Positions 33,251 to 63,700 of a DNA stretch of 64,000 nucleotides are shown here, piece by piece. Source of the DNA: Tomocerus qinae (Eukaryota; Arthropoda; Collembola; Entomobryomorpha; Tomoceridae). The stretch is taken from the NCBI GenBank assembly GCA_020055645.1, contig CM034547.1:40961909-41025908 (forward strand), given 5' to 3'. The position numbers were made by a program, and so were the translations under genes. How positions within the stretch are numbered: the stretch's first letter is position 1; every line of letters starts with the position of its first letter. Under the pieces are notes generated by a model that made no database searches, was not told where the DNA came from, and worked only from the letters and a program-made list of their open reading frames with translations.

Positions 33251-34923
33251 TTAATATTGGTAAGCGACTCTCATTCTTTCTTTGATGTGCTCACCGGCCG
33301 TTTTGTGCCCTGCAGTCGGGTATTTGGTATTAGGTTGAACGAGTTGTGATTTCAGAGGAGAGACGACTGTGGAGTCATCAGGGGCGTAGAAATAGGCAAA
33401 AGAGTAGCGCGGAATTCGTCTCCTCACTTCTTCTGTCGGGATTATCACTCGGTGCAACTAAAACCCAAAATATAATTTGATTTCCACCGTCAAAGGAATA
33501 ATCCCAGTAATTCTTACCGTCGCTGGAAAATAGCCACAAGTCCAAAATTCTAAAAGGTCTCCAGTATTCACTAGAATAGAACCGGGAATTGGCGTTGCGG
33601 GTAGCCAATCTCCATTTGCAGTTTTCACCTATTTAAAATTAATAATAAATAAAAATAAAAGAAATTTACTTCCTCGAAAAATTATTTACGCTAACTCAAA
33701 AGTTTTAAATAAATTTTCCCAAATTGCCCCAAGCACCGTAATTGCTAAATACTTGTACTTGATGGATATCTTGTTGGAGTAAATAAAGCTTACCTCCAAT
33801 CCTCCGATGTCATCTTGGAAAAGCAAAGTCAGAATTTCGTAGTCTGTATGTTCTGCACACCGAACTGTGTTTTCTGGGATTTCCGTATGTTGTGGGATGG
33901 CTGGATAGTAAATACTTCTCAGGTCGCAATTGTTATCAATGTGCTTCTTTTCCAAATGACTTGAACATTTTATCAAATAATCCGGATCTTCCAACTTGAG
34001 GGAAACCCCGACGAGTCTCAGCAATTTCCTCATCAAAATGTTGCAGCAACTTTCAAATTTTTCAATCACAGACTTATAGTCGGGAATCTCGTCCGGGTAA
34101 ACTCGGTTGTGGCCAGTCACGTCAAAACATTCTCGCAGTTCAAACACCGAATTCGGATGCAATCTGACAACAAAAATAAAAGCTGCTTAAAAGTTGATCT
34201 TAAGGGTCAAAAATTAATAAAAACTTAATTAATTGATTAATTAAGGTGTAAAGTAAATATTTGTGTGGTTACAAATAATTTTGCAAAACATTTACTACAA
34301 ATACTACAAAACCCATCAAAATGTGTCTGAGGGTCGAAAAATACGTAAAAATGCTTTAGGGGTCAAAAATTTAAAAAAGTTAAAATTTGATTAAATAAAA
34401 TAAAAATTAATTTTGTCAAAGGATTCCTTAATTTCACAAACTATTTTAAGGGATAAAAAATAATAGCAAATTGCTTCAGAAGATTAAAAATTGATTACAA
34501 ATTATTTCAAGAATAGAAAAAAACTTGATTAAAAACACAACTTTTATAATATTGACAAAAAATATGCAGACTCAGACTGAAAAACCTACAATTCTTGACC
34601 GGGTCGAACAAATCCGTGAGGTTGTTTGGCTGTCTTGGAATATTTCAATTTCGTCTCAAGTGGAAACGAAAAAAATGTTTTATTTTGCTCAAATGCTTTC
34701 TGGACCTGGAATAATTGAAAAGAGAAATAGAAAATGAGCAACAAATAAACGTCAATAATGTTAAAGGACTAACAACTTTCTCGGGAACTTTATGATTGAC
34801 CAAATACATGAATCCAACTTCGTTCAGGGCTTTCCCGATTTGACTTGCAATTTCAATTTCTGTTTCGGGTAGGCATTTTTCGGACCAAAGGAGTGACAAA
34901 TCAATTATCGGGATGTTCTTCAT
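33251..34923 (-). CDS. 2-oxoglutarate/Fe(II) oxygenase, isopenicillin-N-synthase-like, 317 aa
   Basis: Exons (minus): 34774-34923, 34590-34705, 33794-34163, 33518-33628, 33251-33457; all GT-AG, 318 codons. Starts at 34923 with the family's N-terminal IPIIDLS motif, followed by VGFMYLVNHKVP. The catalytic double-stranded beta-helix shows the iron ligands His and Asp in AEHTDYEILTLLFQD, the distal His in LHRVIIP, and an RYSFAYFYAPD segment with the Arg-x-Ser that binds 2-oxoglutarate. Length is normal for the soluble plant/fungal-type (DOXC/IPNS-like) class. No signal peptide, so probably cytosolic. Substrate cannot be inferred. Confidence 0.9.
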
Positions 34924-44363: not shown

Positions 44364-47300
44364 ATGAGGATCCTCTGGTTGCTCTTACTGCTGAGTGCGT
44401 ACTCCTGTGACTGCAAACGAGAAGACGTCATCGAAGATGTCAACGCCAAGGACCTCGCACGACTTCTCGAAGAAAAGGACTACGTCGCCGTCTTTTGGTG
44501 TAATCATTATTATTATTATTATTATTAACCTTTACCATTTACCATTTAATTGTATTTATTGTCGTCCATCGGCCACCGAGGATTGCAAATATTTGCAAAT
44601 CTGCACTAATCTAAATTTAGCAGGAGGCAGACTAACCCAATTGACTCTCACTCTGCTCAGACCCAGCCACACAAAAAACGTCCGGAAATAGAACGGAGCT
44701 CAAACCTCTATCTAACTAACTGCTTCCTCCATCCATCCCATCCTCCTTTCTTATTCTCGTGTGACCTTGACTCCTTTTAAAACAGGGTTCACTCTATTCC
44801 CAATTTATCCCAAATTATATTAATTCTATACAATTATTATTATTCCCTCAACAATTAATTATTCCCCCCGACAGAGAAATAACTCTGATTGAGTGTGAGA
44901 GACGAAGCGACCTTGAATGTGCATTTCTTATTACATCATCCGCTCCTCTATCTTTTTCGGTCCCAGGGAATCTAATTAAATCTCACCGTTTAATTTAATT
45001 AACCAAATACTTTGGCACGCTTTTCTTTTCCGTCACCCAAACAACCGAAACCCTGTCAACCCTATTAAATACCAAGGTGATTATTCATGGCGACGGTGAC
45101 CATACCACCGGCGACATAATCAAAAAAACTATGGGAAAGTCCCCTTGGTGTGTTAACCCTACAGTCCATGACTGCTATTTTAGTTAACCCTATAGCCCGT
45201 GACATGTCTTTTAGTTAACCCTATATAGCCCGTGATGTCATGTCTTTTAGTTAACCCGTGAAATGTGTTGATGGTATTTTGAGTGTTGAATTTGTAGACA
45301 CCAAGAACTGCAAGACTTGTGAGACGGTGTTGGCGGAACTGGAGAAGATCGACGACGAGGCGGATGGATTCGGACTGGATTTTATCAAGATAAACGACAA
45401 GCGGATGGCCAAGAACCACGGGATCGAGTCCTTCCCGTCCCTGACTTACTTCCGCAACAAGGAGCCCGTCACGTTCACTGGAGACCTGGAGAACGAAGAC
45501 GCCGTCCTGGACTTTCTCACCAGTCTGGACTCGATGGACAACCCCGACAGAATTGAAGAGGTGAACGCCAAGATCCTGGACAAGATCGTCAAGGAAACCA
45601 ACTACGTCGCCGTCCTATTCTGTAATCAAAGATAACTTGTACAAATATATGATATATATATTATATAATTATATAATGTTGGATAGGACTATGTAGAGGT
45701 AAATCGTTGTTGGTGGTAAATGGCTAATTTTTGTACAGGTCGGTCAATTGCGGCTTGCCGGGAGAAAAGTAGGTCCACTCCACACAATTACAATTACACA
45801 ATCCGAATGCTGAACTTTCGGCTCTCCCCACCCACCCCACCCCTCACCCCCTTAAAAGACAAGACAAGTCGTGAGAGTGTAATATTATTTGGGCGGGTTG
45901 TTCTGACTTGACACGCACATACCAACATACTGCCAACCACACCCTAACAATTATACCACCATTTTATCCCATTTCCCACTTTTTATTAAAAATACCATTT
46001 CCCACTACTTAAATAATTGTGGTACATTAATTGTTGGGTGCGGATGGCGCTACTTATTGCGAGTATTCTGTAGATCGAATTATGTTTGTAGCACTTTTGA
46101 TAGTCGCCATAGAGATATTATTTATTTATTTATTCATTTATTAGAATTTGTTTTCTTTGAGTGGCGTGACTGGCGTGGAGTGTGAATTTATAATAATAAT
46201 GGGATCATGATGACTGACATTAGACACGCCCGACTGTCGGAAGTGCGAGAAGGCCCTTCGGGAGTTGGAGAACATTGATGACGAGGCCGATGAGTTGGGC
46301 ATCGCCTTCGTCAAGATCAACGACGAAGAGTTGGCTGACGAATACTCACTCAGCCAACTCCCCGCCCTCGTCTACTACCGAAACCAAATACCAATCGTCT
46401 TTGACGGAGACTTGTCCAAGGAGGAAGAAGTCCTCCACTGGATCGTCTCCAACAAATCCACCGGAGACGAAGATGACAACGACGAGATTGAGGCCGTCTC
46501 CGCCAAGGCTCTCTGGACACTCGTCGACTCTGTCGACCATCTTACCGTCCTTTTCTGTACTATTATTTTTTATACCCAGGGGGGCAATTTACAATTTCAT
46601 TCTTTTTAGACTCAGGGTCCGAATTTACAATTATTTTGTTAAATCGTAGACGACAATTCCGCGCTGAGCAACAATGCCCTTAAAGAACTGGAGAACATTG
46701 ACGACGACTGTTCCCGACATGACATCCAATTTGTCAAGACGGAGGACAGGAAGGCGGCCAAAGACTTCGGAATCGACGAAATTCCCGCCCTCGTCTATTT
46801 CGAAAACAAAATTCCAAACCTCTACGACGGTATTCAATATTATTCAAGCGTTTAATTAATTACTTAATTCATATTAATTAATCATTTTAGGCGATCTCCG
46901 GGACGAGCACGACGTGCTCAAGTGGCTCCTGCACCAAAAGGACAGCGACGAAATTGAAGATGTCACCAGCGAGATGCTGGACAGACTCATCCGCGAATCT
47001 AAATCTCTCGCCGTCCTCTTCTGTAATTCTTGAAATTCTTAAATTTAAATCATTTTAAGCATAAACTTTAAAAAAGTTAATTTTAATTTTTAATGATATT
47101 TAAAATTTAATTTTGTAGACGAAGATGACGGTACAGAGTCGAATACTGCTTTGGCTGAACTGGAAAACATTGACGACGAATGTGACGCCAAGGGAATAAT
47201 TTTCGTCAAGATTGACGACATGAAGGAGGCTGCCCACTACGGAATTGACGAAACACCTAGGCAACATTTTAACTCTATTTTAACTTTATATTTCTAAATT

Positions 47301-48591
47301 AAATAAATATTCATGGAAAATGATTTTACAGCCTGGTATATTTCGAAAACTCGATTCCTTCTGTCTTCGAGGGCGACTTGAGCAAGGAGGACGACGTTCT
47401 GCAGTGGCTGACGGACCAACTCGTCAAAGACGAGATCGAAGAAGTCACCGATGAAATGCTCAACATGCTCATCAACAAAAACCAACAACTCGCCGTCGTC
47501 TTCTGTAAGCAAATTCTCAATTTATTCCCTTAAACCGAATTCAAAAAATATCTTGAAAACTTTTTAAGCCACAAATAAAATTTTAAAAAATCCATCATAA
47601 AAATTATAAAAATATTTTAAAAAGAACATGTTTAGTAAAATTTAAAATTACAGTAATTTAATGGAGTCATTAAAATTTAAAAGCATAAATAATTTTCACA
47701 AAGTCCTGTCAGGTCAGTAACAAAATATTAAAAAAGCAAGAGTAACGAAATTATTAAGAACTTATAACAAGAAATAATTCCCAAAATATATTTTTCGATA
47801 AATTACGTAAAATTGTAGCGAATAATAAATGTTTAAGATAAGTTTATGTATTAATGTATTAATATTTGGTTGTCTGGGATACTATAATAATAATATTAGA
47901 TAATAGTGTAAATATAATTTATTTGTAACAGCGGAGCACGACGATGTGGCCGTGCTGTTTTGTAAGATTCTTTTTCGCTTCTTTTCATTTCTCTAACACT
48001 TTTTGCCCTTTTCGTTGAAAAATACGTTTTTTCCGATTTTTGTCGTCGACTCTGTCGATGGAATTTTTGGACTAACACTAACCCTTAACTTGTCCTTATT
48101 TTGTACAGTAGAGATGTTTCGTTGACACTTTCTGCATATTTGAATTGGTCAACGAAGGGTCTCGGAGATGGTAGGGAGGAGTCTAATTGGATTGGTTGGT
48201 AACAGACGACAAGGAGAGTCGCAAGAGCGAGAAGATCATCGAAGAGTTGGAGTCCATTGACGACGAGTGCGACAAGTACGGAATCATCTTTGTCAAGATC
48301 TCGGACGAGACCAAGGTCCGCGAGTTGGGCATCGGACTCCCGAGTCTCGTCTACTTCGAGAACCGAATCCCCCATCTCTACGAAGGAGACCTCACCGACG
48401 AAGACGCCACCCTCAACTGGCTCGTCCACCAGCTCAAGTCTGACGAGATCGAAGAAGTCACCGACGAAATGCTCGACCAACTCATCGACAGACATCCATA
48501 CGTCGCCGCCCTCTTCTGTAAGTAAATGATATAATATTATAATAACGACATTGGGGGTATTCACTCCCAATCACTTAATTACTTACTCACT

Positions 48592-48624
<33 letters not shown>

Positions 48625-51600
48625 AGGTGCTGCGAATAGTTGTTTCGTATCTGTAATCTAACGTAGTTTGCATCTTTTGGGATTAACCCCGATTAGAGTT
48701 ATGCTTTCAATTACATTTGGCAGCCAAGGAATAGCGGAAAATAGCTATCCGCAGCGCCCCTATTATTTAGTATGTGTTAGTAGGGGTATTCATTCATATT
48801 AGTATATTCATGTAGTGTGACGTCATTGGTGTTGTGTGTTTGTGTTTAGATGACCTCGAGGCGCTCTCCAGTAACTATTTTTGGGTTCACATAGCAACGC
48901 AAATATTCGTCCGCCTTTGGCCTAAGCATTTCTTTTTCTTTTCTTTGTGCACTAAACTTGTTTGATTGAGAAATAATCTAATCGAACGATTATATTTGCC
49001 TGTTGCTGCGTGAATCTCCATTTTATACTGGAGACCTTTTCTATGTCTTTCATTTATTATTTATTTGTGCTAATTCATTTTCTGTGGGTAGACGACAAGG
49101 ACGACAAGACAGATGTCCGCATCCTCCTCGAACTAGAAAACATTGACGACGAGTGCGACGCCCAGGGCATCGTCTTTGTCAAGATCGACGACGACAGCGA
49201 GGCCAAGGAGTACGGATTCGAAGATCTCCCTGTACTCGTCTACTTTGAGAACAAAGTGCCCTCTCTCTTCGAAGGAGACCTGTCCAACGAAGAGGAAGTC
49301 CTCAAGTGGCTCGTCGAACAACGGGACACCGACACCATCGAAGAAGTCACCGACGAAATGCTACAAAAACTCATCGGCACCCACCAATATGTTGCCGTAT
49401 ACTTCAGTAAGTCAATATATCTCCTCAAAATTATTAAAGGCTGCAAATTAACTCGTACAGCACACACATGACTTTTGTATGGCAGATTTTTTAACAAATA
49501 TTGTGAATTACTTTATGAATGTATATAGCAAGATTGGCAAACATTGAATAATAATAGTAATAATTAACCGTAGGTAACAACTGTAGAACCTAAAACAAGC
49601 ACAGTTTAAAAAAATTTAACTTACCATATAAATTCAATCGTGCCATACACGTTCATATACCGCCATACAAAGTCACACTAATCTAAAAAAGTTACACATT
49701 CAGTCTTGCCATACACATTCATAAACCGCCATACAAAGTCACACTAATCTAAAAAAGTTACACATTCAGTCTTGCCATACACATTCATAAACCGCAATAC
49801 AAAGTCACACTATATAAACTTAACTTACCATACACATTCAGTCTTGCCATACACATTCATAAACCGCCATACAAAGTCACACTATATAAACTTAACTTAC
49901 CATACACATTCAGTCTTGCCATACACATTCATAAACCGCCATACAAAGTCACACTATATAAACTTAACTTACCATACACATTTAGTCTTGCCATACACAT
50001 TCATAAACTATCATACAAAGTCACACTATATAAACTTAACTTACCATACACATTCAGTCTTGCCATAAACATTCAAAAACCGCCATGCAAAGTCACACTA
50101 TATAAACTTAACTTACCATACACATTAAGTCTTGCCATACACATTCAAAAACCGCCATGCAAAGTCACACTATATAAACTTAACTTACCATACACATTAA
50201 GTCTTGCCATACACATTCAAAAACCGCCATGCAAAGTCACAATATATAAACTTAACTTACCATACACATTCAGTCTTGCCATACACATTCATAAACCGCC
50301 ATACAAAGTCACACTATATAAACTTAACTTACCATACACATTCAGTCTTGCCATACATACACATTCATAAACCGTCATACCAAGTCACACTATCTAAACA
50401 AATTAACTTACCATACGCATTCAATCTTGTCATACACATTAATAAACCGCTCTTATAATTATAATAAAAATAATAATCTTAATATAATCCTAATAATCTT
50501 AATATAAAATATAATCTTATAATAATAATAAATACAAAGTCAAACTACATATTTTTAGCTATCTTATACGTAAGTCATGTGTCTGCCATACAATTTCCTA
50601 TTTCAATTTCCAATATTAATCAAAACCTTGGCCCAATTATTTATTTAGTAATATTATACTCCAGTTGATTAATACTAAGAATCATTGATAAATAACCTAA
50701 GTGACTAAGGTGACCTTAGTATTTTTCTGTGGCCTACTTCATTTTTCTGTTACAATGAACAAGTTTCTCCCACTTGACCTTGGCCCAATTAATTAAAAGT
50801 AGGCCCACTTAAATGAACCTTGTTTTAGTTAATTAAACCTTGGCCTAGATAATTGAATGGTTGGTTCAGATAATTTAACGCTAGCTCGATTGATTGAAAC
50901 CTGAGCTGAATTAATTGAAACTTTTGCGCACTTATTTAAATCTTGGCCCAATTAATTGAAACTTTTGCCCAATTATTTAAACATTGGCTCAATTAATTGA
51001 AACTTTTGCCCAATTATTTAAACATTGGCTCAATTAATTGAAACTTTTGCCCAATTATTTGAACCTTGGCCCAATTAATTGAAACTTTTGGCCAATTATT
51101 TAAGCCTTGGCCCAATTATTTGAAACTTTTGGCCCCATTATTTAAATCTTGGTCAAATTAAATTGTCCTCTCGTTAGCCGAAACCCTGAGGAAAATAATA
51201 AATAAATAATACCCTGAAAAGTGGAAAAGGTTTGTTTAAACTAAATCCTAAATTGGAAAAGGTGGTCCCTGTGAGGAGGAAGAAAAGTGTTCTTCAATTC
51301 TTGACGATTTGGAATCGCTGGACGACGACGCTGATGAGGCGGGTATTACGATGGTGACAACAGAAGAGACTTCTTTCGCATCCAAGTCTCTGGGAGTGAA
51401 GACGTTCCCAGTTCTGTTCTTGTTCCGTAACGGCGAGCCTCTTCTGTTCAAGGGCGACCTGCAGGACGAAGACGAAGTGTTGACGTGGGTGACAGACGAA
51501 CAGAGTCTCGAGTTGCCCGACAGAATTGAAGAAGTGAACCTGCGCATGCTCCAGAAACTGCTGGACAACAACGAACACGTGGTCGTCTATTTCTACCGCG

Positions 51601-54600
51601 AGTCTGACAAGAAGTCGGTCAAGATCCTCTCAGAACTCGAGAACATTGACGACGAGGCCGACGACGCCGAAATCGCCTTCGTCAAGATCTCGGACGATTC
51701 GATGCTGCGGGAGTACGAACTCGACCCGTTGCCTACCCTTGTCTACTTCCGGGCCAAATTCCCACAGATCTACCCGGGAGACCTCAGCAAGGAGGAGTCT
51801 GTCCTCGAGTGGCTCATGCGACTCAAGGAAAGTCCACGTGATGTCATTGAAGAAGTTGACCACAGAACTCTCAAGATGCTTCTCGACGAACTCGACCACG
51901 TCGCCGTCCTTTTCCGTGAGTCTAACCAAAACTCATTTAAATACTCAGGGGTGCACTTTAAAAATGAAAATTACCTATACTCAGGGGTGCACTTTAAAAA
52001 TTGAAATTAAGTATACTCAGGGGTGCATTTTAAGCATGAAAATTAAATATACTCAGGGGTGCATTTTAAAAAGGAAAATTACCTATACTCAGGGGTGCAC
52101 TTTAAAAATTGAAATTAAGTATACTCAGGGGTGCATTTTAAGCATGAAAATTAAATATACTCAGGGGTGCATTTTAATTAATGATAGCACTATGCATTTT
52201 AAAAAGGAAAATTACCTATACTCAGGGGTGCACTTTAAAAATTGAAATTAAGTATACTCAGGGGTGCACTTTAAAAATTGAAATTAAGTATACTCAGGGG
52301 TGCACTTTAAAAATTGAAATTAAGTATACTCAGGGGTGCATTTTAAGCATGAAAATTAAATATACTCAGGGGTGCATTTTAAAAAGGAAAATTACCTATA
52401 CTCAGGGGTGCACTTTAAAAATTGAAATTAAGTATACTCAGGGGTGCATTTTAAGCATGAAAATTAAATATACTCAGGGGTGCATTTTAAAAAGGAAAAT
52501 TACCTATACTCAGGGGTGCACTTTAAAAATTGAAATTAAGTATACTCAGGGGTGCATTTTAAGCATGAAAATTAAATATACTCAGGGGTGCATTTTAAAA
52601 AGGAAAATTACCTATACTCAGGGGTGCACTTTAAAAATTGAAATTAAGTATACTCAGGGGTGCATTTTAAGCATTAAAATTAAATATACTCAGGGGTGCA
52701 TTTTAAAAAGGAAAATTACCTATACTCAGGGGTGCACTTTAAAAATTGAAATTAAGTATACTCAGGGGTGCACTTTAAAAATTGAAATTAAGTATACTCA
52801 GGGGTGCACTTTAAAAATTACAATTAAGTATACTCAGGGGTGCACTTTAAAAATTAAAATTAAGTATACTCAGGGGTGCACTTTAAAAATTGAAATTAAG
52901 TATACTCAGGGGTGCACTTTAAAAATTGAAATTAAATATACTCAGAGGCAGTTAAGCATCCAGGGGTGCACTTAAAAATGAAAACGATGGAATGCATGAA
53001 TGGAAATAGAAAGGGTTGGATTTTAATGATATATTATTGTACTATGATAGACGAGGACGATTGTGGCACTCTATGTGACACTGTGTTGAAGGAGTTGGAG
53101 ACAATTGACGATGAGGCGGACGATGTGGGTATCTACTTGGTCAAGACAACAGACACGTCAGTAGCGGAAGAATTGCGGGTGCGGGAGTTCCCGACATTGG
53201 TGTACTACCAGGGCGGCGCCCCTTCCATCTACAAGGGTAACATTGACTTTTATATGTTTGTGCATCTTTTTACTTACTTTCGGATTTCGGATGGCACGGT
53301 TTTTAGCGTAGTGTAGTTCTTAAGGAATGATTTGCAGGTGACTTGCAAGACGAAGACGCCACCATCGCGTGGATCAAACGGGCCTGGTTCGTCTACAACT
53401 CCCTCAACAACGAAGGTAACCACTCCTCTGTCGAAATCTGTAGTGACAAAAACACCGCCTCACCAAACTCTGTAAAGTTGTAATAAAATGGGGCCCTGTT
53501 GGGGAATATTGAATACTTGATTGTTGGTGGCCAAGGGGATGAGTTTAGAGGTAGTGAGGTGGTGTGAATTTAGTTCTGTTTGTTTGATGTCAAAAATGGA
53601 TGATAGAGGATGAGGAAGAGTCTTGTATGATAATGAAGTTGTCAGATGACGACTCGGACGAAATGTTTGCCTCCGAAGAGAAGGAGTACCGCTGCTGCCC
53701 TGCCCACATTGACATCTGCCAAGGTAAACAACAAGTCCCCCCTCCAGAGGAAGGCCACCAACCCTCATCCGAAGACACCGACGGGTCCGAGGAGGCATCC
53801 GGCTCCGGAGACGACGACGACCACCACGAGTTGTCCGAAGAGGAGATTGACGAGTTGACGATGAAGGAGCAGCTGCGGCGGGAGGCCGTCCGAAATACCA
53901 TCCTCTCCACGGGCAAACTGTCAGGTTAATCTTTGGTGGCCTTCTTCTGTTAACAACTTCCGGTTACTTAATTCATTAACTCTTTTTTTGTCTAATCGGA
54001 ACAATAATAATATAATCCAATATTCGTTAATATTCGTTAATAATTATTCGTTAATAATTATTCGTTGTTGTTGTTGTTAATATTCGTTGCCCAAGTAGCG
54101 ATTAGACAAAGAGCCGATTGGCGGGAGGGACGGACATTTAAATGTTTTGTTGTGAATTCCAGGAAAGTCCAAGAAAATCGAAAAACAGGAAAGTTTACTG
54201 CAACGAATCGTGACGAATTTGTTCCGACTTTTCAAATAAATTGCTCAACTCTATTGATCATCTCTTGTTTTCCACTGAGCCACTCAGCCACGCCACAGCC
54301 ACCGCCAAATAAACCACAAAGAAATGCTATAAATTATAATTGATTAATAAAACCGTGCCATTTCGATTGCCTTTCGTAACTTGCTTTTGTCTTTTCTTTC
54401 TTTCTTTTACTCTCTTCTTTTCCAGGAGATCTTCTCGAGGAAGGCGAAGTCCTCCACTGGCTCGTCTACCAACGCAAATTCGAGGCACTCCCCGAACTCA
54501 CCCGCTCCGACCTCGACGACCTCATCGGAGACTCGGACTATCTCGCCGTCGTCTTTTGTCAGTAACTCATCTATTCATTCCATCTCCACATTTATTCCAT

Positions 54601-57600
54601 TCATTTATTTATCTATTCAATATTCAGTCAGCAATTTTAGCGACCTCAACGGACGCGCCCTGCGACGGGCCAGCTTGATTGCCGAAGATGCTGCCACTTT
54701 TGGAATTCCCATCGCCAAGATGGGAGATCCTCTCATTGCCAAAAAATACGGCATCCGTGATCTCCCAGGTCTCATCCTCTTCAGAAGGGGAAGACACATC
54801 AAGTACGAAGACGACTTGGAGGACGAAGAGGAAATGCTCGATTGGCTCACTGCACCCGAAAACATGATTCTCAGAGATCAAGTAACCATCTTGTTTTGTG
54901 AAATGCACCCCTCCTTAACATGTACACTTTTAAAAAGTGAAATGCACCCCTCCTTAACATGCACCCTTTTGAAAAATGAAATTCACCCCTCCTTAAAATG
55001 CACCCTTTTGAAAAATGAAATGCACCCCTCCTTAAAATAATAAATACCCCTCCTTAACTTGTACACTTTTGGAAAGTGAAATGCACCCCTCCTTAAAATA
55101 ATAAACACCCCTCCTTAAAATGATAAACACCCCTCCTTAAAATAATAAACACCCCTCCTTAAAATAATAAACACCCCTCCTTAAAATGATAAACACCCTT
55201 CCTAAAAATGCACCCTTTTGAAAAGTGAAATGCACCCCTCCTTAAAATGCACCCTTTTGAAAAATGAAATGCACCCCTCCTTAAAATAATAAATACCCCT
55301 CCTTAACTTGTACACTTTTGGAAAGTGAAATGCACCCCTCCTTAAAATAATAAACACCCCTCCTTAAAATGATAAACACCCCTCCTTAAAATAATAAACA
55401 CCCCTCCTAAAAATAATAAGCACCCCTCCTTAAAATGATAAACACCCTTCCTAAAAATGCACCCTTTTGAAAAGTGAAATGCACCCCTCCTTAAAATGCA
55501 CCCTTTTGAAAAATGAAATGCACCCCTCCTAAAAATCTTCCTTGTTTGCTAGATTGAAGTTGTTAATCGAAAGATGCTGGAACGGATGCAGCAGAACACT
55601 GACCATCTCGCCGTTCTCTTTTGTAATGACATTTCCCTTCGGGTGTTTTAAGGCATCGAAAATGTTTGGCAATCAGTTTGCTCTATGTTAGATGAAAAAA
55701 TGTTTTTTTGAAATTTTTGGAACAAAGTGTGGAGTATTGGGTAACCCAACGCGCTTTGACAGAACTTGCTTCATTAATGGTGATTAATGAAGAATGAATT
55801 AACGTAAAATGAAAATATATTTAATTTCCTAACCTAACCTAACCTAACTTTGTAAGAATGTCAACGCGTGTTGGCTTAACCATTTTTAAAAGTGGACGGA
55901 GCTTAATTTTAGAGACGTTTTGCTGGAGATTATAACATTTTCGATGCCCGTGTTTCTTTGCGACTCATAAGTTTTGTCATCCGACTCGCTCGAAGGACCA
56001 AATGAAAGTTTTGAGTCAAAGAGGAGTTTGACAGAATTTGTGGTATTTGCTTGTAGTTAGTGAGACTGACTGTAAGCAGTGCGAAAGAGTGGTCAGTGCC
56101 CTCGAAGAAATTGACGACGACGCCGATGAAAATGGAATCGCATTCGTTAGGTAAAGTTAGGTTGGTCATATGGTAACCTTGAGTATCAATTCATATTCAT
56201 TGGCATTATTAATGGTTTAGGGTCGATGACTGGGATTTGGCCAAATTCTGGGGTGTCCACGCACTGCCCGCCCTCCTCTACTTCCGGTTAGTCAAAAAAA
56301 TGTAAAACCCGAAATAATAGAATGAGAGTATTAAAAGTTAAAAAATACTGATTAATATTCATGGGTGTATTTTAATACTTTATTATTTAATATTCATGGG
56401 TGTATTTTAATACTTTATTATTTAATATTCATGGGTGTATTTTAACACAAATATTCTGTTAGAGTTGAATGAATTATTGACATTGTAGATTGGGGTCGGA
56501 CGAGCCTGTGATATTTGCGGGTGACTTGCGGTCGCCACCCCGAATTCTGGAGTGGCTGTTGATGAGAAAAGACCCGAGTGGTACAGCCATGGAGGAAGTC
56601 ACCGGAGAACAACTGAGCAAAATTATTCAAGAGGAAGATCATTCCGTCGTCGTCTACTTTTGTAATTGCAATAAATTAAATCAGTTAATAATAGTAATTA
56701 GTTAATTGAGTTAACGTTTAAATTAAATAGACAACAAGCCTCAGTGCACGGCATGTGAACCCACCAAGAAGAAGAAGAAGGACAAGGAGCAGGAGACACC
56801 CGAACAAGAAGCCGGTACTCTTGATCCATCCACTTGGGTCTTTTTAACCATTAAATGTCGGCTGATTGTGTTTTAGAGCGCCTGGCGGGTTGTGCCAAGT
56901 GTCGGGAGATCATGGAGAAGCTGGAGAACGTCGACGACGAAGTTGCCCGCCACAGCGTCAACTTTCTCCGAACTGCGGATTTGGCCTTTGCGGCAGAACA
57001 GGGCGTCGGAGAATACCCGGCACTGGTCTACTTCCAGAATAACCAGGCGAGCGTGTACGAAGGAGAATTGACGGCCGAGGAAGACGTCCTCCACTGGATC
57101 GTGGAGCACAAGACAGAGTCGCGGATCGAGTTGGTCACACGCGGCATGCTGGAGCAGCTCCTCGTAGACACTCACTATCTCGCCGTCTTCTTTTGTATGC
57201 TGAATACGTATTTAATAGGCAGATTGCGAATATACATAATAATAACATAACGTTAACGTCAACGTAAACGTCAATAGACAAGCAGCCGTGTCGGGCGTGT
57301 GACACGATTCTGATGGAGCTGGAGAAGATTGACGACGAGTGTGACACGTACGGGATCCACATGGTCAAGATTGCGGACCCGCAGCTGGCCAAGAGGTACG
57401 GCATCACGACGTTCCCTGCGCTGCTGTACTTCCGGAACGGAAACCCGCTGCTGTTCGAGGGAGACATGAAGAACGAGGACTCAGGTTGACATATCTCAAT
57501 TCTCAGAATATTCAATTCTTGCCAATAACACAAACTGTAATTCTGTTTTTTATTAGGAAAGCGACTTAACCACAGTAAGTGACGCTTGATAGATTCTTAT

Positions 57601-60438
57601 TCATTTATTTAGCGGTTTCTTTTTGCCATTAACATGTCTCTTGTCTTATCGTTTACGTCCATCCATCGTGTCATCTGACACTATCTTTGTCATTGCCTGA
57701 TTCGCTTGCGCATGATCACAAACTTAATTTAATTTATAAAAGAAAAAAAAAGAAACCAGCGCACGAGGCAGCAAAAAAGACTAAAATGAAAATCGGAATT
57801 GTGTGTTTAGTTCTGGACTGGCTCACCGACGACGACAACCGAGAACTCGCTGACGAGATTGAGGCCGTCAACCACAAGATGCTCGAGAAACTCATCGACA
57901 CAAGCCCCTTCCTCGCCGTCTTTTTCTGTAAGAAATAATTATTATGACCATCAATAACTCTATCATAACTGCACGTGTAAAAGTCTTTTTTAAGATATTT
58001 GAACCAAGTTAGGAAATTTAATTAATTATTTAATTTTACGTTTATTTTTCCACGCAATTCCTCTAACATTTTAATAAATGTCATTCATGATTTGCCTAAA
58101 TAGATGACGAGGAGGAGTGCGGCGAAGAGTGCGACTTGATTTTGGTTATTCTCGAAGAAATCGACGATGAAGCAGACGCTTTCGGTGAGTGAATATTAAT
58201 ATCATTTATTGTTAATTAATTAACTATTGTGAATGTTGTTAGGGATCGATATGGTGAAGGTGGTTGAAGGAGACACGGCGGCAGAATTCAATATCATGCA
58301 GACTCCGGTGATGGCCTATTTCCGGAAGGGCACTGCTCTTTTGTACGAAGGAGATCTCATGGACTCTGCTCAGATCCTCGGATGGCTCACCAGCAACGAG
58401 GCTTTCGAGCTCAAGGACGAAATTGAAGAAGTCAACAGGCGCATGCTCGAAAAGTTGCTCGACGACTCGGACTTTGTCACCGTCTACTTTTGTAATGACC
58501 TTTTAAATCTGTGCAACACTTGACAGCATAAACTAGACAATAGACAATTAATATATGACGAGACTAATCGGGGGGCAAACTCTGGGACAAACATTCATAA
58601 TATCCAATAATGACGTCACCATCCATAAATCCAATGATTACGTCACTATCCATAAATCCAATGACGTCACTAACCATAAATCTAATGACGTCACTATCCA
58701 TAAACCAAATGACGTCACTATCCATAAATCCAATGACGTCACCAAGATGCCTCCATTACAAGGTGAAGACATAGAGGGATATTCCCCCAGTTTGCACCCA
58801 ATTTGAATTCTACCTATACTGCCACAGAGAAGTAAACACCCAAGCCGAAAGTAACCATGGTTATTTGGTTTGGGTGCCTACCACTCTGTGGTAGAAAGTA
58901 AATACGGATTGGGTGCTAAAATCCGGGAAACCCCATCTATGTCTTCACCTTGTAATGGAGTTGATATTAAACAATTGCGTTACTATAGAGTGACAAATTC
59001 GAGGCATCTTGGACGTCACTATCCATAAATCCAATAACGTCACTATCAATAAATCCAATAACGTCACTATCCATAAATCCAATGACGTAACTATCCATAA
59101 ATCCAATGACGTCACTATCCATAAATCCAATGGCGTCACTAACCATAAATCCAATGACGTCACTAACCATAAATACAATGACGTCACTAACCATAAATCC
59201 AATGACGTCACCATCCATAAATCCAATGACGTCACCATCCATAAATCCAATGACGTTATTATTGATAAATCCAATGACGTTATTATTGATAAATCCAATG
59301 ACGTCCCTATCCATAAATCCAATGACGTCCCTATCCATAAATCCAATGACGTCCCTATCCATAAATCCAATGACGTCCCTATCCATAAAACCAAAGATGT
59401 CACTATCCATAAATCCAATGACGTCATTATTGATAAACCCAATGATTACGTCACTATCCATAAATCCAATGACATCACCATCCATAAATCCAATCATGAT
59501 GTCACTATACATAAATCCAATGACGTCACTAACCATAAATCCAATGACGTAACTATCCATAAATCCAATGACGTAACTATCCATAAATCCAATGACGTAA
59601 CTATCCATAAATCCAATGACGTCACTATCCATAAATCCAATGACGTCATTATTGATAAATCCAATGACGTCATTATTGATAAATCCAATGACGTCATTAT
59701 CGATAAATCCAATGACGTCATTATTGATAAATCCAATGACGTCATTATCGATAAATCCAATGACGTCATTATTGATAAATCCGATGACGTCCAATGACGT
59801 CATTATTGATAAATCTAATGACGTCATTATTGATAAATCCGATGACGTCCAATGACGTCATTATTGATAAATCCGATGACGTCCAATGACGTCATTATTG
59901 ATAAATCCGAAGACGTCCAATTACGTCATTATTGATAAATCCAATGACGTCACCATACATAAATCCAATGATGACGTCACTATTGATAAATCCAATGACG
60001 TCACCAAACATAAATCCAATGATGACGTATTTATTGATAAGTCTAATGATGACGTTACTATTGATAAATGTAATTGATGACGTAGATGAGAATGACGTGG
60101 ACTGTCCCCGATGCCCGGAGATCCTGGAAGAATTGGAGAGGATCGACCAGGAGATTGACAACTTGGACATTGTGTTTGTGCGGATTGAAGACACCAAGTA
60201 CGCCAAGAAGTGGGGAGTGACCAAAATACCCGCCTTGGTGTACTTCAGGAGGAAGTTCCCGGCTATTTTCCGGGGAGAGTTGACAGACGAGGTGGCGGTG
60301 TTAGAATGGCTTCAGAAGAATCGTTACAAACAACCAGAACTGAACCTGTTCATGTTCGGACTGGCGTCCCTGTCACTGGCCTTCGTCGTCTACACCGTCT
60401 TCATTCTCGTCTGTCTCAAACACCCGCCAGAGTCTTAA
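44364..60438 (+). CDS. Giant membrane protein with about 16 tandem thioredoxin-like units, 1,836 aa
   Basis: Exons: 44364-44499, 45298-45621, 46224-46556, 46650-46829, 46891-47022, 47119-47260, 47332-47504, 47932-47961, 48206-48517, 49092-49406, 51262-51915, 53051-53236, 53338-53415, 53607-53924, 54426-54557, 54628-54881, 55553-55622, 56057-56150, 56221-56286, 56489-56661, 56731-56814, 56877-57194, 57278-57484, 57811-57927, 58104-58184, 58243-58491, 60086-60438; they sum to exactly 1,837 codons. Signal peptide MRILWLLLLLSAYS; C-terminal transmembrane helix (LFMFGLASLSLAFVVYTVF) and short tail KHPPES. Each unit of about 105 residues reads: E(I)EEV...LL...YVAVLFY, a CxxC position, ELExIDDEAD, GIxFVKI, a central P in PALVYFRN, FxGDLxxEEEVLxWL: a thioredoxin fold. 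CxxC is intact in units such as NCKTC, DCRKC, PCRAC and DCPRC, spaced CxxxC in others, and lost in about seven. Overall very acidic. Predicted lumenal or extracellular redox, Ca-binding or chaperone role by analogy with PDI and calsequestrin. Confidence 0.88.
45153..45256 (+). repeat. 36-bp tandem repeat in intron 1
   Basis: Three copies of a GTTAACCCTATAGCCCGTGA-type unit, immediately before exon 2. Confidence 0.7.
48592..48624. repeat. (GTA)n microsatellite
   Basis: About eleven uninterrupted TAG triplets in the intron after exon 9. Confidence 0.9.
49628..50455 (+). repeat. 72-bp minisatellite in intron 10
   Basis: About eleven copies of a 72-bp unit containing CATACACATTCATAAACCGC and CACACTATATAAACTTAACT, itself with an internal half-repeat (CCATACACATTCA). 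Confidence 0.9.
50755..51165 (+). repeat. 41-bp minisatellite in intron 10
   Basis: About ten copies, partly degenerate, of a 41-bp unit such as CTTGGCCCAATTAATTGAAA plus CTTTTGCCCAATTATTTAAA. Confidence 0.85.
51944..52975 (+). repeat. 36-bp minisatellite in intron 11
   Basis: About 28 copies of TATACTCAGGGGTGCA(C/T)TTT followed by 16 A/T-rich bases, in a few alternating variants (AAAAATTGAAATTAAG, AAAAAGGAAAATTACC, AAGCATGAAAATTAAA). A multiple of three, so a 264-codon false frame runs through it. Confidence 0.95.
54896..55540 (+). repeat. CACCCCTCCTTAAAAT minisatellite in intron 16
   Basis: About 30 short units of CACCCCTCCTTAAAATAATAAA and of AATGCACCCTTTTGAAAA type, with a higher-order duplication of about 270 bp (near 54990-55225 against 55255-55500). 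Confidence 0.9.
56345..56450 (+). repeat. 35-bp tandem repeat in intron 19
   Basis: Three copies of AATATTCATGGGTGTATTTT plus AATACTTTATTATTT. Confidence 0.9.
58606..60065 (+). repeat. 24-bp minisatellite carrying the CRE palindrome TGACGTCA, intron 26
   Basis: About 50-60 copies of AATGACGTCACTATCCATAA plus ATCC, with variants in the middle (ATTATTGATAA, AACCATAA, CCCTATCC). Most units keep TGACGT, many the full TGACGTCA. A CCAAG-family element interrupts it at 58742-59012. Both strands are open for over 260 codons because the unit is 24 bp. Confidence 0.95.
58742..59012. mobile_element. CCAAGATGCCTC-terminus MITE with 6-bp duplication
   Basis: CCAAGATGCCTC (58742) and GAGGCATCTTGG (to 59012) are flanked by ACGTCA at 58736-58741 and 59013-59018, a hexamer of the CRE repeat it entered. 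Inner arms ATTACAAGGTGAAGACATAG and complement make most of the left half fold. Confidence 0.85.
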
Positions 60439-60734
60439 TTTTATTATTATATATTATCTACATTTAATAAATTTAATTTATTACGCTCAGCCTTATTTAT
60501 TCATCTATCTCTATATTATAACCACCAAGATGCTTTACCCACAGGTTATGACTAAAGTTATAATAAAAGGTGTCTTGGGATAGATTTGATTTGATTTTGT
60601 TACCTCCCATGTTATACCCGTTTATTTGTATTTACATCAGGCGAGGAGAGTAAACTCGATTGGTTGGTATTTACAAAAATATACAAAAATATACAAAGAG
60701 TAAATTTAATAGATAACTAAATAATTATATTAAA
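60439..60734. other. Convergent 3' intergenic region
   Basis: Separates the plus-strand thioredoxin-repeat gene from the minus-strand papilin gene. A weak CCAAGATGC...GTGTCTTGG inverted repeat at 60525-60579 might be another degraded hairpin. Confidence 0.4.
60466..60471 (+). terminator. Polyadenylation signal of the thioredoxin-repeat gene
   Basis: AATAAA 28 bases after the TAA stop codon. Confidence 0.7.
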
Positions 60735-63700
60735 TCACGATAGTTTGGACTCTAGTTGAGATGGCGAAGAGGAATTCCTCCTGCGGGTCACGTACTCGGT
60801 CGCCCGTCTCTTGAAGTACGCTAATTAAAAGTAATCTTGCATCAACATACATTATGGTCACAATTAACACGCAAGGACGGACACGGGACAATCACAACAA
60901 GCCAAAAATCTTGTGCAGCAGCGGCAGCTCTTTTTTACCCTGTCCGTATTCTTGCAGGTGAGGCCCATAGGACGGCAACTGACCCGCCAGAGTGCACGAC
61001 TTGCAGCAGAACCGCGCGTAGTACTTGTTCGTACAGTACGACGCCTTCACTATCAACTTGCAGTTCGCAAAGAAAGGATTGTCCGTGCAGTTCTCGTGCA
61101 AGTGCAGCGCTGCAATTAAATCAAGTTGAATGAAATTAAACGAGTCATTTAATCGTTTCAAACATTTAATTACCTTCTACAGATATTTCAAGGGCGTCAG
61201 ATGCAATTGTGTAATCGTTGGTTGCTTTGCATGTATACACTCCGCTGCAATAAATTAAAAGACGGTTCATGGGTCTGTCATTGTGCTAGTAATAAATTAT
61301 AAATGCTTGCCTGTCCGTGACGGTGGCGTTAGAGATGACGATGGAGTTGGTCTCGGTGAATAGGACTCGGTCGTTGCTGTATATCTTGACGTCATCTCTT
61401 AACCAACTCACTTCTGGAGGCGGGTAGCCTTCGGTCGTACAGTCCAGTCGTATCTCGTCCCCTTGATTGTACTTTATCTTGTCCGTCCGAACTTCCGCTC
61501 TCAAAGCAACTAACCAAAATTAATTCTTATCTACTTAAGTCGAGGTTAGAAATAAATAAAGTTAAATGTTAAATGAATGTTAGAAATAAAGCAGAAAGAG
61601 AAAAAGAAAGCGCAAGCGCGGATTGTTTTACCGACGTATCTACGCTCAGTGGTGGTTGTGACTGGTAGATGATGGTGGTGAGGAGGCGGCGGGGGTGCGA
61701 CGACCCGGGTGACATCAGTTCTTCCTCCGACGATGTATTGGAGCAGATCGGCGTCATCTTCGGTGAGGGTGGAGTAGTCGACGTTGCCCTCGCCGAAGAC
61801 GTAGACGGTGTAGGAAGCGGCTCGTCCCATTCCGTTGTAGGCCTGGCACGTGTAGCCCCCGAGTTCCTTCACACTCAGCACCCGGATCAGGAGGCTAAAG
61901 TCCCGCAGCTGCTGGTACTTCTCCGACGAGAATGGCAACATTGTCTCTCCCCGCCACCACGTGATCGAAGGACGGGGCCATCCGATCGCATAGCAACGAA
62001 TATTCGTCGGTTCGTTCAGACGGGCAACAATCTCCGGATTTGCGTGCTCCAGAATTGTCGCTTGCGAAGGAGAAGGATCCTCTACAAATAACAACCGTCA
62101 CCAAAGCAACCATCACCATACACATCACCCTTAAAGAAATTCCCCTGCATAAATAAGCCTAAAAGAAATTCCCAACCAAAAATCCCCCATAGAGAAATTT
62201 TCGAGATTCCTATATATATATAGGCATCTCAGAAATGCCTATATATATTGTATATATAGGCTATATAAATATTAAATAGTTGATATTAAATAAATGCGTT
62301 ACTATAGAGAGGCATCTTGGAAATTACCATACAGAAATCAGTCGAATAGAAATTCCCATACAAAAAACACACATACAGAAATCAGCCAAAAAGAAATTTC
62401 CATACAAAAATCACCCATATAAAAATCAGGCTTAAAGAAATCCCCATATAGAAATCAGATTTAAAGAAATCCCCATACAGAAATCAGGCTTAAAGAAATC
62501 CCCATAAAGAATCAGTCTTAAAGAAACCCCCACACAGAAATGACGCTAACAGTTGATGAAATCAAGTGTAAAAATAGGTTTACCTTGGATGGAGACTGTG
62601 AAATGTCTGGCGTCTGTGGAGTGAATGTTGGAGGCGGTGCAGAGATATTGACCCTCGTCCGTTTTGTAGACACCGACGATCTGAAGAGTCCCGTCCTCTA
62701 GAATTCGCATTCTTCCAGAGTCTCCAGAAATCTAAATCAATTTGTTTTTCTAAATCTCTTGTTGAATTGTAAATAAAGACATTGTCACCTTTTCGCCATT
62801 CCTTGACCAAATGATTTGCGGTTCGGGAGATCCTCTGGCCATGCACTCGAGAGAGACCAACCCGCCTTCGGCTGCCACCACGTTCACGTCTTCAGAAATT
62901 ATCCGGGCACCGTCCTCTGCAATAATTAAATACCAATGTTATTACCAAGGTATTTTAAATACCATGGCTACCAAACAAGGTATGGTAATACTTTTTTTAA
63001 TCTCTCACAGCCACTAATGAGGATCAAAGGAGGAGGAGCCATAGAGCATTATTACTCTATGGCATGGGGACGCGTTTCGTGGTTTTCAGTGAATTTCAAA
63101 ACGGACTTACGGTTGGAAATGGGCGGGAGGCAGTTGGAACCGCAAGAAGTTCGACAGCATTTGAGTTCCTCGCTGCAATCGGCGTCTGTCGCACATTCCT
63201 CCACACACGTCTTTGTATGTCCACTCATCACTGGACAAATACCCGTCTTGTTCACTGCACAAATAAATATCAAATTAGTATCTAAAATCTGTCTACAGAC
63301 AGACAGACAGACAGACAGACCTTTGACAATAGCTTATTTGGTTAGATAATAATAATAAGTCACCTTGACGACAGATGGCTCTGAAGGAGGGACTGTCTCC
63401 ATTGTTGTCGTGTTGGTAGTAAATGTCGACAGCGCAGAGGGATTCGGGTGGACACGTGGTTTCGCGGCAAACGTCTCTGCACTGACATCCGATGCACGTG
63501 TCTTGCCAAGTCTCGATTCCGTAGGGACATCTCAATTCACGGCAATAGCTTTCTTCCCGCTCGCAGTCACGCACCTCCGAAGACACTGTCAAAACCAACA
63601 ATGAACGTTACAAGGTGATGCCAACTTTTGGTCACAACCAAGGTTAGTGAATTGCATGAATAGTTTAAATCAAATAGGATGTGCGCATGTGCAGTGCAGG

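What the first reader, a model, noticed from the sequence alone, without database searches (positions are those of the whole stretch)
44364..60438. A predicted 1,836-aa membrane protein made of about 16 tandem thioredoxin-like units
Twenty-seven exons join in frame to give a signal peptide, a long string of thioredoxin-like repeats and one C-terminal transmembrane helix. Known PDIs carry two to five such domains; a 16-unit array on a membrane anchor is exceptional. Several units have CxxC, others CxxxC or none, so the array mixes potential redox and purely structural units. The high Asp/Glu content suggests Ca2+ binding as in calsequestrin, which is also a thioredoxin-fold repeat.
Basis: partly seen in the sequence, partly recalled or inferred. 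Interest (0 to 1): 0.75.

Follow-up and report, generated by a model that had tools for sequence, protein, structure and literature searches.

The report
Membrane protein with fifteen thioredoxin-like domains
A genome, probably an arthropod's, carries one intact-looking gene for a membrane protein built of fifteen thioredoxin-like domains in a row, some with possible redox-active cysteine pairs and some without, against at most six such domains in the relatives looked at here.

Summary
A 26-exon gene model on the + strand (44364-60438) splices in frame to 1,813 aa: signal-like N-terminus, 15 (not 16) thioredoxin-like units, one C-terminal transmembrane stretch. Each exon scores as coding above all 309 intron windows. 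Mean identity between units is 39.7%. In 14 of 15 units a phase-1 intron cuts the same codon, the mark of tandem duplication of one exon module. Searches of the 334-Mb genome with parts of the protein found no second copy. The one unit readable from a single exon is predicted as a thioredoxin fold. Six units carry CxxC at the PDI active-site position, three have wider pairs, six have none, four of them neighbours (U3-U6).

Best reading: a membrane-anchored PDI-like protein of the secretory pathway, redox-competent towards both ends, largely redox-dead in the middle. Calcium binding is possible but untested; no calsequestrin family match was listed. From memory, not by sequence test, it recalls fly l(2)01289/CG9432, called a PDI in print. 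No eukaryote sequence collection or transcript was available, so orthology, species, expression and function stay open.

The parts
44364..44499 (+). Exon 1: start codon, signal-like peptide (about residues 1-17, MRILWLLLLLSAYSCDC), first part of unit U1
   Evidence: signal peptide by inspection only
45298..45621 (+). Exon 2: U1 from its CKTC site, start of U2
46224..46556 (+). Exon 3: U2 from its CRKC site, start of U3
46650..46829 (+). Exon 4: middle of U3 (no Cys pair)
46891..47022 (+). Exon 5: end of U3, start of U4
47119..47260 (+). Exon 6: middle of U4; followed by a GC-AG intron (donor AG|GCAACA), chosen by hand
47332..47504 (+). Exon 7: end of U4, start of U5
48206..48517 (+). Exon 8: U5 main part (no Cys pair), start of U6
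49092..49406 (+). Exon 9: U6 main part (no Cys pair), start of U7
51262..51915 (+). Exon 10: rest of U7, all of U8, start of U9; the only place where the unit-boundary intron is missing. Stretch used for structure prediction
53051..53236 (+). Exon 11: U9 with CGTLC
53338..53415 (+). Exon 12: repeats the GDL...W segment also encoded by exon 14; phase 1-1, so skippable together with exon 13
   Evidence: coding score 1.18 over 25 codons
53646..53924 (+). Exon 13: acidic linker, no Pfam match; phase 1-1, so skippable
   Evidence: coding score 0.91 in frame, 0.00 and 0.04 in the other two frames
54426..54557 (+). Exon 14: end of U9, start of U10
54628..54881 (+). Exon 15: rest of U10, the most divergent unit (no Cys), and the first residues of U11
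55553..55622 (+). Exon 16: start of U11 (weakest coding score, 0.43)
56057..56150 (+). Exon 17: U11 with CKQC; junction chosen by homology (score 5.1) over a higher-scoring one (6.3)
56221..56286 (+). Exon 18: U11 continued
56489..56661 (+). Exon 19: end of U11, start of U12
56731..56814 (+). Exon 20: CTAC and Lys-rich insert of U12; skipping it would make a TAG at the joint (read by eye)
56877..57194 (+). Exon 21: U12 from CAKC, start of U13
57278..57484 (+). Exon 22: U13 with CRAC
57811..57927 (+). Exon 23: end of U13, start of U14
58104..58184 (+). Exon 24: U14 with CGEEC
58243..58491 (+). Exon 25: rest of U14, start of U15
60086..60438 (+). Exon 26: U15 with CPRC, TM stretch, 6-residue tail KHPPES, stop; AATAAA at 60466-60471
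60340..60417 (+). Predicted transmembrane helix (residues 1782-1807), the only stretch with 19-residue hydropathy above 1.6

Best explanation
One intact-looking, apparently single-copy gene encodes a type I membrane protein of the secretory pathway, probably of the ER, whose lumenal part is a chain of 15 thioredoxin-fold domains. The array arose by repeated tandem duplication of one phase-1-bounded module. It most likely works like a membrane-anchored PDI: units with CxxC near the N-terminus (U1, U2) and near the membrane (U11, U12, U13, U15) exchange dithiols and disulphides with client proteins, while units without a cysteine pair (U3-U6, U8, U10) act as spacers and client-binding surfaces, as b-type domains do in PDI. 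Shown by computation: the gene model, the array, the predicted fold of one unit, the placing of the CxxC motifs. Inferred: ER location, catalysis, client binding, any calcium binding.
For: In-frame 26-exon model with a signal-like N-terminus and one C-terminal TM stretch. All 26 exons have coding scores 0.43-1.47 against a maximum of 0.06 in 309 intron windows (trained on the other exons of the same model, background from the same introns). 15 units, mean pairwise identity 39.7%. Pfam Thioredoxin E 2.6e-52 for the whole protein; 7 of 15 units match PF00085 alone at E<=0.01. A profile of the 15 units finds ERp72 (3.5e-14) and PDI (2.5e-13) as best PDB matches. AF2 model of exon 10: mean pLDDT 78.4, the complete unit shows the helix and strand order of a thioredoxin fold; Foldseek's first hits are PDI, ERp72, calsequestrin, ERp44, ERdj5. 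The Cys pairs sit as in PDI: FYTPDCRKC here (U2), FYAPWCGHC in ERp72 (3idv alignment), and the proline before the third strand is invariant in 15 of 15 units.
Against: No CGHC site: the XX residues are atypical and the Trp before the first Cys is absent. The C-terminus KHPPES shows no retention motif known to me, so ER retention is unproven. No transcript evidence. 9 of 15 units lack CxxC. 8 of 15 units did not match PF00085 alone at E<=0.01. The earlier 7-row profile reached only 8 PDB sequences at E<=0.01, best 1.2e-5. NCBIfam PDI and thioredoxin models match far below their cut-offs. The two-unit model superposes on multi-domain PDIs only loosely (rmsd 9-17 A, TM by query up to 0.45).
Confidence: 0.6

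Rival explanations
1. A calcium store or sensor working like calsequestrin: the acidic Trx-like array binds many Ca2+ ions with low affinity, with the cysteines only structural.
For: 24.0% D+E and pI 4.25 for the mature lumenal part, all 15 units pI 4.05-4.69 (U9 without its insert); acidic exon 13; calsequestrin among Foldseek hits from rank 9 on; the only PF01216 match in the genome is marginal (27.9 bits against a 27 cut-off) inside a Trx-rich locus on C4, so no clear calsequestrin gene was seen.
Against: PF01216 is not among the 23 families listed for this protein at E<=10; the sequence profile points to PDI and thioredoxin, with no calsequestrin among the 60 shown of 171 matches; no acidic C-terminal tail; CxxC kept in six units. 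The genome search is exon by exon and could miss a split calsequestrin.
Confidence: 0.15
2. A structural rod or tether without catalysis: consecutive Trx-like folds hold a terminal domain at a distance from the membrane, with cysteine pairs making permanent disulphides.
For: 9 of 15 units lack CxxC; U3-U6 look locally duplicated (92/92 support, below the tool's starred level; 48-60% identity); very short cytosolic tail.
Against: CxxC lies at the catalytic position in six units spread over both ends of the array, which suggests retention under selection; the tree is too poorly resolved (0 of 12 inner branches starred) to tell retention from recent duplication.
Confidence: 0.15
3. Several shorter genes, or a partly decayed locus, wrongly chained into one.
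For: No transcript data; weak splice scores at some joints (1.8 at exon 2/3, 2.2 at exon 22/23); long minisatellite-filled introns.
Against: One signal-like start and one TM stretch; no in-frame stop; unit halves on neighbouring exons complete each other; intron phase 1 at the same codon in 14 of 15 units.
Confidence: 0.05

Closest known systems
Drosophila l(2)01289 (CG9432)
   Same: Papers call it a 'Thioredoxin-like domain' gene (PMC2777252, passages) or a protein disulfide isomerase tied to lipid droplets (PMC5362240, passages); PMC3827500 (passage) lists a splicing difference between female and male heads. My recollection, from no call, is that it is a large multi-Trx protein.
   Different: Not comparable here: no fly sequence was available and none of the passages seen gives its number of domains. 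Homology is a recalled lead, not a test.
PDI family of the ER (P4HB, ERp72, ERdj5)
   Same: Trx-fold domains with and without CxxC in one secretory protein; best sequence and fold matches.
   Different: Up to six domains (ERdj5, PMC3040216 passage) against 15; CGHC sites there (seen in 3idv) and KDEL-type endings (recalled), neither here; TM anchor here.
TXNDC16/ERp90
   Same: Multi-Trx-like ER protein (5 domains); PF24508 TXNDC16_N matches above cut-off for the whole protein (65.3 against 27 bits) and in 2 of 15 units at E<=0.01.
   Different: ERp90 is soluble and has no CxxC (PMC3040216, abstract and passages). The PF24508 search of the own genome, exon by exon, found nothing, this locus included.
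TXNDC11
   Same: Five Trx-like domains in one ER protein, linked to ERAD (PMC7563561, passage).
   Different: A third of the domain number; no sequence comparison made.
Calsequestrin
   Same: Acidic repeated Trx folds; Foldseek match.
   Different: Three domains and an acidic C-terminal tail (PMC12862029, passages); PF01216 not listed here.
UGGT
   Same: Four tandem catalytically inactive Trx-like domains (PMC7563561, passage).
   Different: It is a glucosyltransferase; no such domain among the 23 families listed.

Membership tests
PDI family | Thioredoxin-fold domains | tested here: met
   fold predicted for U8 only, the others by homology (23-51% identity to U8)
[quoted passage not shown]
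   Six units; the aligned positions in U8 are model residues 115 and 118, at the start of helix 116-134
PDI family | Proline (cis in PDIs) before the third strand | tested here: met
   Invariant P73 in 15 of 15 units; cis geometry itself not checked
PDI family | Secretory signal peptide | tested here: inconclusive
   Typical N-terminus by eye; its 19-residue hydropathy does not exceed 1.6; no signal-peptide predictor available
PDI family | ER retention signal | tested here: not met
   Protein ends in CLKHPPES; members of the TMX subfamily are membrane anchored (PMC7563561, passage), so I treat the feature as common, not required
PDI family | Thiol-disulphide exchange activity | not testable with these tools
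   Needs biochemistry
Calsequestrin (PF01216) | Match to the family profile | tested here: not met
   Not among the 23 families listed at E<=10
Calsequestrin (PF01216) | Three Trx-like domains and an acidic C-terminal tail | tested here: not met
   15 units, TM and short tail at the C-terminus
Calsequestrin (PF01216) | High-capacity Ca2+ binding | not testable with these tools
   Acidic composition only
TXNDC16/ERp90 | TXNDC16_N domain at the N-terminus | tested here: inconclusive
   PF24508 matches inside the array, best at 451-507, not at the N-terminus; 2 of 15 units; nothing exon by exon
TXNDC16/ERp90 | Soluble, five domains, no CxxC | tested here: not met
   TM, 15 domains, six units with CxxC
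Fly l(2)01289/CG9432 orthologue group | Sequence orthology | not testable with these tools

The most novel reading that the evidence does not exclude
The 15-unit array is a new kind of ER machine: a long membrane-anchored rod with redox-active units at the N-terminal tip and next to the membrane, joined by a largely cysteine-poor spacer, which passes disulphides or holds clients over a distance that a four- to six-domain PDI cannot span, with optional use of an acidic linker (exons 12-13) as a switch.
Probability: 0.12. Interest if true: 0.75.

Novelty: new variant of a known kind. Interest (0 to 1): 0.45.

Why it matters
It extends the thioredoxin/PDI fold to a 15-domain array in one chain and offers a natural series of versions of the same domain with and without cysteine pairs, duplicated with their exon boundaries. 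If the fly gene l(2)01289 has the same plan, the lipid-droplet and A-beta toxicity phenotypes reported for it would gain a concrete molecular hypothesis. If not, the array is a lineage-specific expansion.

Tried and rejected
Sixteenth unit: all six-frame ORFs of at least 20 aa in the window were searched with a unit profile, filters off; no unit besides the 15, and exon 13 has no Pfam match. Paralogues: the two own-genome protein searches used only part of the protein (682 of 1,813 aa, 131 aa); 17 of 17 and 19 of 19 matches lie in this locus, the second at E<=10; the tool scores only its best candidates, so this is strong but not exhaustive. Calsequestrin membership: rejected. Relatives in prokaryotes or viruses: none by tblastn, with limited probes (one 104-aa unit-length stretch in genome contigs, 65 pattern matches; one conserved motif in viral contigs, 144 pattern matches). 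Exons 12-13 as non-coding: rejected by coding score, though skipping stays possible. NCBIfam: only matches far below cut-off, in the 5 of 7 exon proteins given. RNA families: none at gathering score in the window.

Literature: ten searches over open-licence PMC. In their listings (titles and starts of abstracts) I saw no description of a protein with more than six Trx domains; most papers listed were not opened. Eight papers were opened, all as passages only (PMC2777252, PMC5362240, PMC3827500, PMC8654903, PMC3040216, PMC3654919, PMC7563561, PMC12862029); PMC8654903 and PMC3654919 were chance number matches and gave nothing.

Full report
Gene model. A unit profile, seeded with eight stretches read from the ORF list, was run over every six-frame ORF of at least 20 aa in the window. 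Strong hits are confined to + strand ORFs between 44340 and 60435; outside them the best i-E is 1.5. Two short exons score weakly on their own (i-E 0.013 and 0.01). Splice junctions were then listed around hand-chosen cores by phase, absence of stops and a generic splice matrix. The chosen junction is the top-scoring listed one in 23 of 25 joints. The exceptions are exon 16/17, where the joint that preserves the homology scores 5.1 against 6.3, and exon 6/7, where the GT-AG search listed nothing and a GC-AG intron (AG|GCAACA), found by eye, restores DETP-SLVYF exactly. The 26 exons join to 1,813 aa without an internal stop. AATAAA lies at 60466-60471, 28 bases after the stop.

Coding evidence. 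With codon frequencies trained on the other exons of the model (12 and 13 always left out) and the introns as background, each of 26 exons scores 0.43-1.47 bits per codon, against a median of -1.22 and a maximum of 0.06 in 309 intron windows of 30 codons. Exon 13 scores 0.91 in the model's frame and 0.00 and 0.04 in the other two. Short exons (for example 16, 23 codons) are noisy. This test is internal to the model: it shows coding character, not transcription.

Units. The protein holds 15 units of 104-111 aa, apart from U12 (134 aa with its insert) and U9 (225 aa with exons 12-13). Mean pairwise identity is 39.7%, range 21-60%. U10 and U12 have the longest branches. U3-U6 form a group with 92/92 support, just short of the tool's starred level; none of the 12 inner branches is starred, so the order of duplications is mostly unresolved. 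Invariant in the 15-row alignment: L12, P73, L97; nearly so: E5, V7, V24, F26, L41, E42, D45, L75, G88, L90, W99.

Duplication history. In 14 of 15 units a phase-1 intron interrupts the codon after the VAVxF strand, just before the active-site loop; it is missing only in U8, inside the 654-base exon 10. Modules bounded by introns of the same phase can be duplicated or skipped in frame. Further introns inside units differ in place: U3, U4, U9, U11 (three), U12 (a second one near the loop), U13, U14; U3 and U9 share one in the Gly codon of GDL.

Cysteines. CxxC at the PDI position: U1, U2, U11, U12 (twice, around a Lys-rich insert encoded by exon 20), U13, U15. CxxxC: U9, U14. Cx5C: U7. No pair: U3, U4, U5, U6, U8, U10. 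U3-U6 have instead a single Cys in the IDDEC/IDDDC segment at the end of helix 2, which U13 has in addition to its pair. So redox-competent units lie towards both ends, and units without CxxC fill the stretch U3-U10. In U11, U12 and U15 the pair sits one or two residues further from the FY than in PDI.

Fold and relatives. Exon 10 contains the one complete unit (U8) readable without splicing. AlphaFold2 on a 7-row alignment of single-exon translations (P0001-P0007) gave mean pLDDT 78.4 and pTM 0.53; the U8 part is 80-91 in blocks of ten, with element order helix-strand-helix-strand-helix-strand-strand-helix. The relative placing of the neighbouring half units is not reliable. Foldseek against the PDB: 354 matches at E<=0.001. 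The first ranks are PDI (also in EDEM, prolyl-hydroxylase and MTP complexes), ERp72, calsequestrin, ERp44 and ERdj5, with rmsd of 9-17 A where both units are aligned. Five of the 50 listed rows superpose one domain at 1.7-2.1 A over 105-111 columns (archaeal thioredoxin 3, two chains; ERdj5 J-Trx1; rice PDIL2-3; yeast PDI). A sequence profile of all 15 units finds 171 PDB sequences at E<=0.01, best ERp72 3.5e-14 and PDI 2.5e-13; the earlier profile of the 7 exon translations, cut across domain borders, found only 8, best 1.2e-5. Pfam on the whole protein: Thioredoxin 2.6e-52, Thioredoxin_2, Thioredoxin_6, Thioredoxin_3, TXNDC16_N and others; scores of repeated weak hits add up, so single units are the stricter test: 7 of 15 for PF00085 and 7 of 15 for PF13098 at E<=0.01, and none for U6, the first member scanned.

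Uniqueness. Protein searches of the 334-Mb genome with two parts of the protein gave 17 and 19 matches, all inside this locus. PF00085 gives 52 matches genome-wide, none of them in this locus, probably because single exons score too low; those are other Trx-domain genes. The species was not identified.

Function. By family knowledge, Trx-fold units with CxxC at the start of helix 2 and a proline before strand 3 can catalyse thiol exchange, and units of b type without the cysteines bind clients (PMC3040216, passage). Hence the PDI-like reading. Acidity (24.0% D+E) is compatible with weak Ca2+ binding but proves nothing. The C-terminus shows no retention motif known to me, so a surface or post-ER location is not excluded.

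Literature. From memory I connected the array with fly l(2)01289/CG9432. Papers, seen as passages, say only that this gene is annotated as Trx-like and that insertions at or next to it modify A-beta toxicity (PMC2777252), that it is called a PDI, that its RNAi gave enlarged lipid droplets and that its product was reported on droplets (PMC5362240), and that it shows a splicing difference between the sexes in heads (PMC3827500). No passage states the number of domains. Orthology therefore remains a lead, and the grade 'new variant' would fall to 'new member of a known kind' if the fly protein proves to be a comparable array.

Noticed in passing
G000:C1:7194025-7369319 (own genome, not the window): 11 Pfam Thioredoxin matches on the minus strand within 175 kb, two of them with in-frame stops: a likely tandem cluster of thioredoxin-domain genes.
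   Followed up: no
window 53416-53487: Reading on past exon 12 gives a stop at 53481-53483 overlapped by AATAAA (53482-53487): a possible alternative last exon that would make a form without the TM. Coding score of the extension 0.11 over 21 codons, barely above the intron maximum.
   Followed up: partly
window 49612-50450, 51941-52945, 54899-55536, 58609-58742, 59012-60083: Introns of the gene hold long minisatellites (main periods 72, 36/108, 39/61, 24 and 24/27 bases); periods divisible by three make long open frames that I take to be meaningless.
   Followed up: partly
U3-U6 and U13 (exons 4, 6, 8, 9, 22): A lone Cys at the end of helix 2 appears in the four neighbouring units that lack the active-site pair, and in U13.
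   Followed up: no
window 33689-34186 (-): ORF with a 2OG-Fe(II) oxygenase domain, closest in the PDB to thymine dioxygenase and an ethylene-forming enzyme; a foreign origin is only a guess.
   Followed up: partly
window 23108-24743 (-) and 26512-27446 (-): Exons of an AMP-binding enzyme gene and of an alpha-amylase-family gene (the exon at 27033-27446 only by eye).
   Followed up: partly
window 61549-62097 (-): Immunoglobulin-domain exon of the neighbouring gene on the opposite strand.
   Followed up: partly
window 12651-13958 (-) and 20130-21932 (-): Two long ORFs without Pfam match at E<=0.01: 436 aa in the most G+C-rich 2-kb block of the window, and 601 aa rich in Ser/Pro/Asn with internal repeats.
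   Followed up: partly
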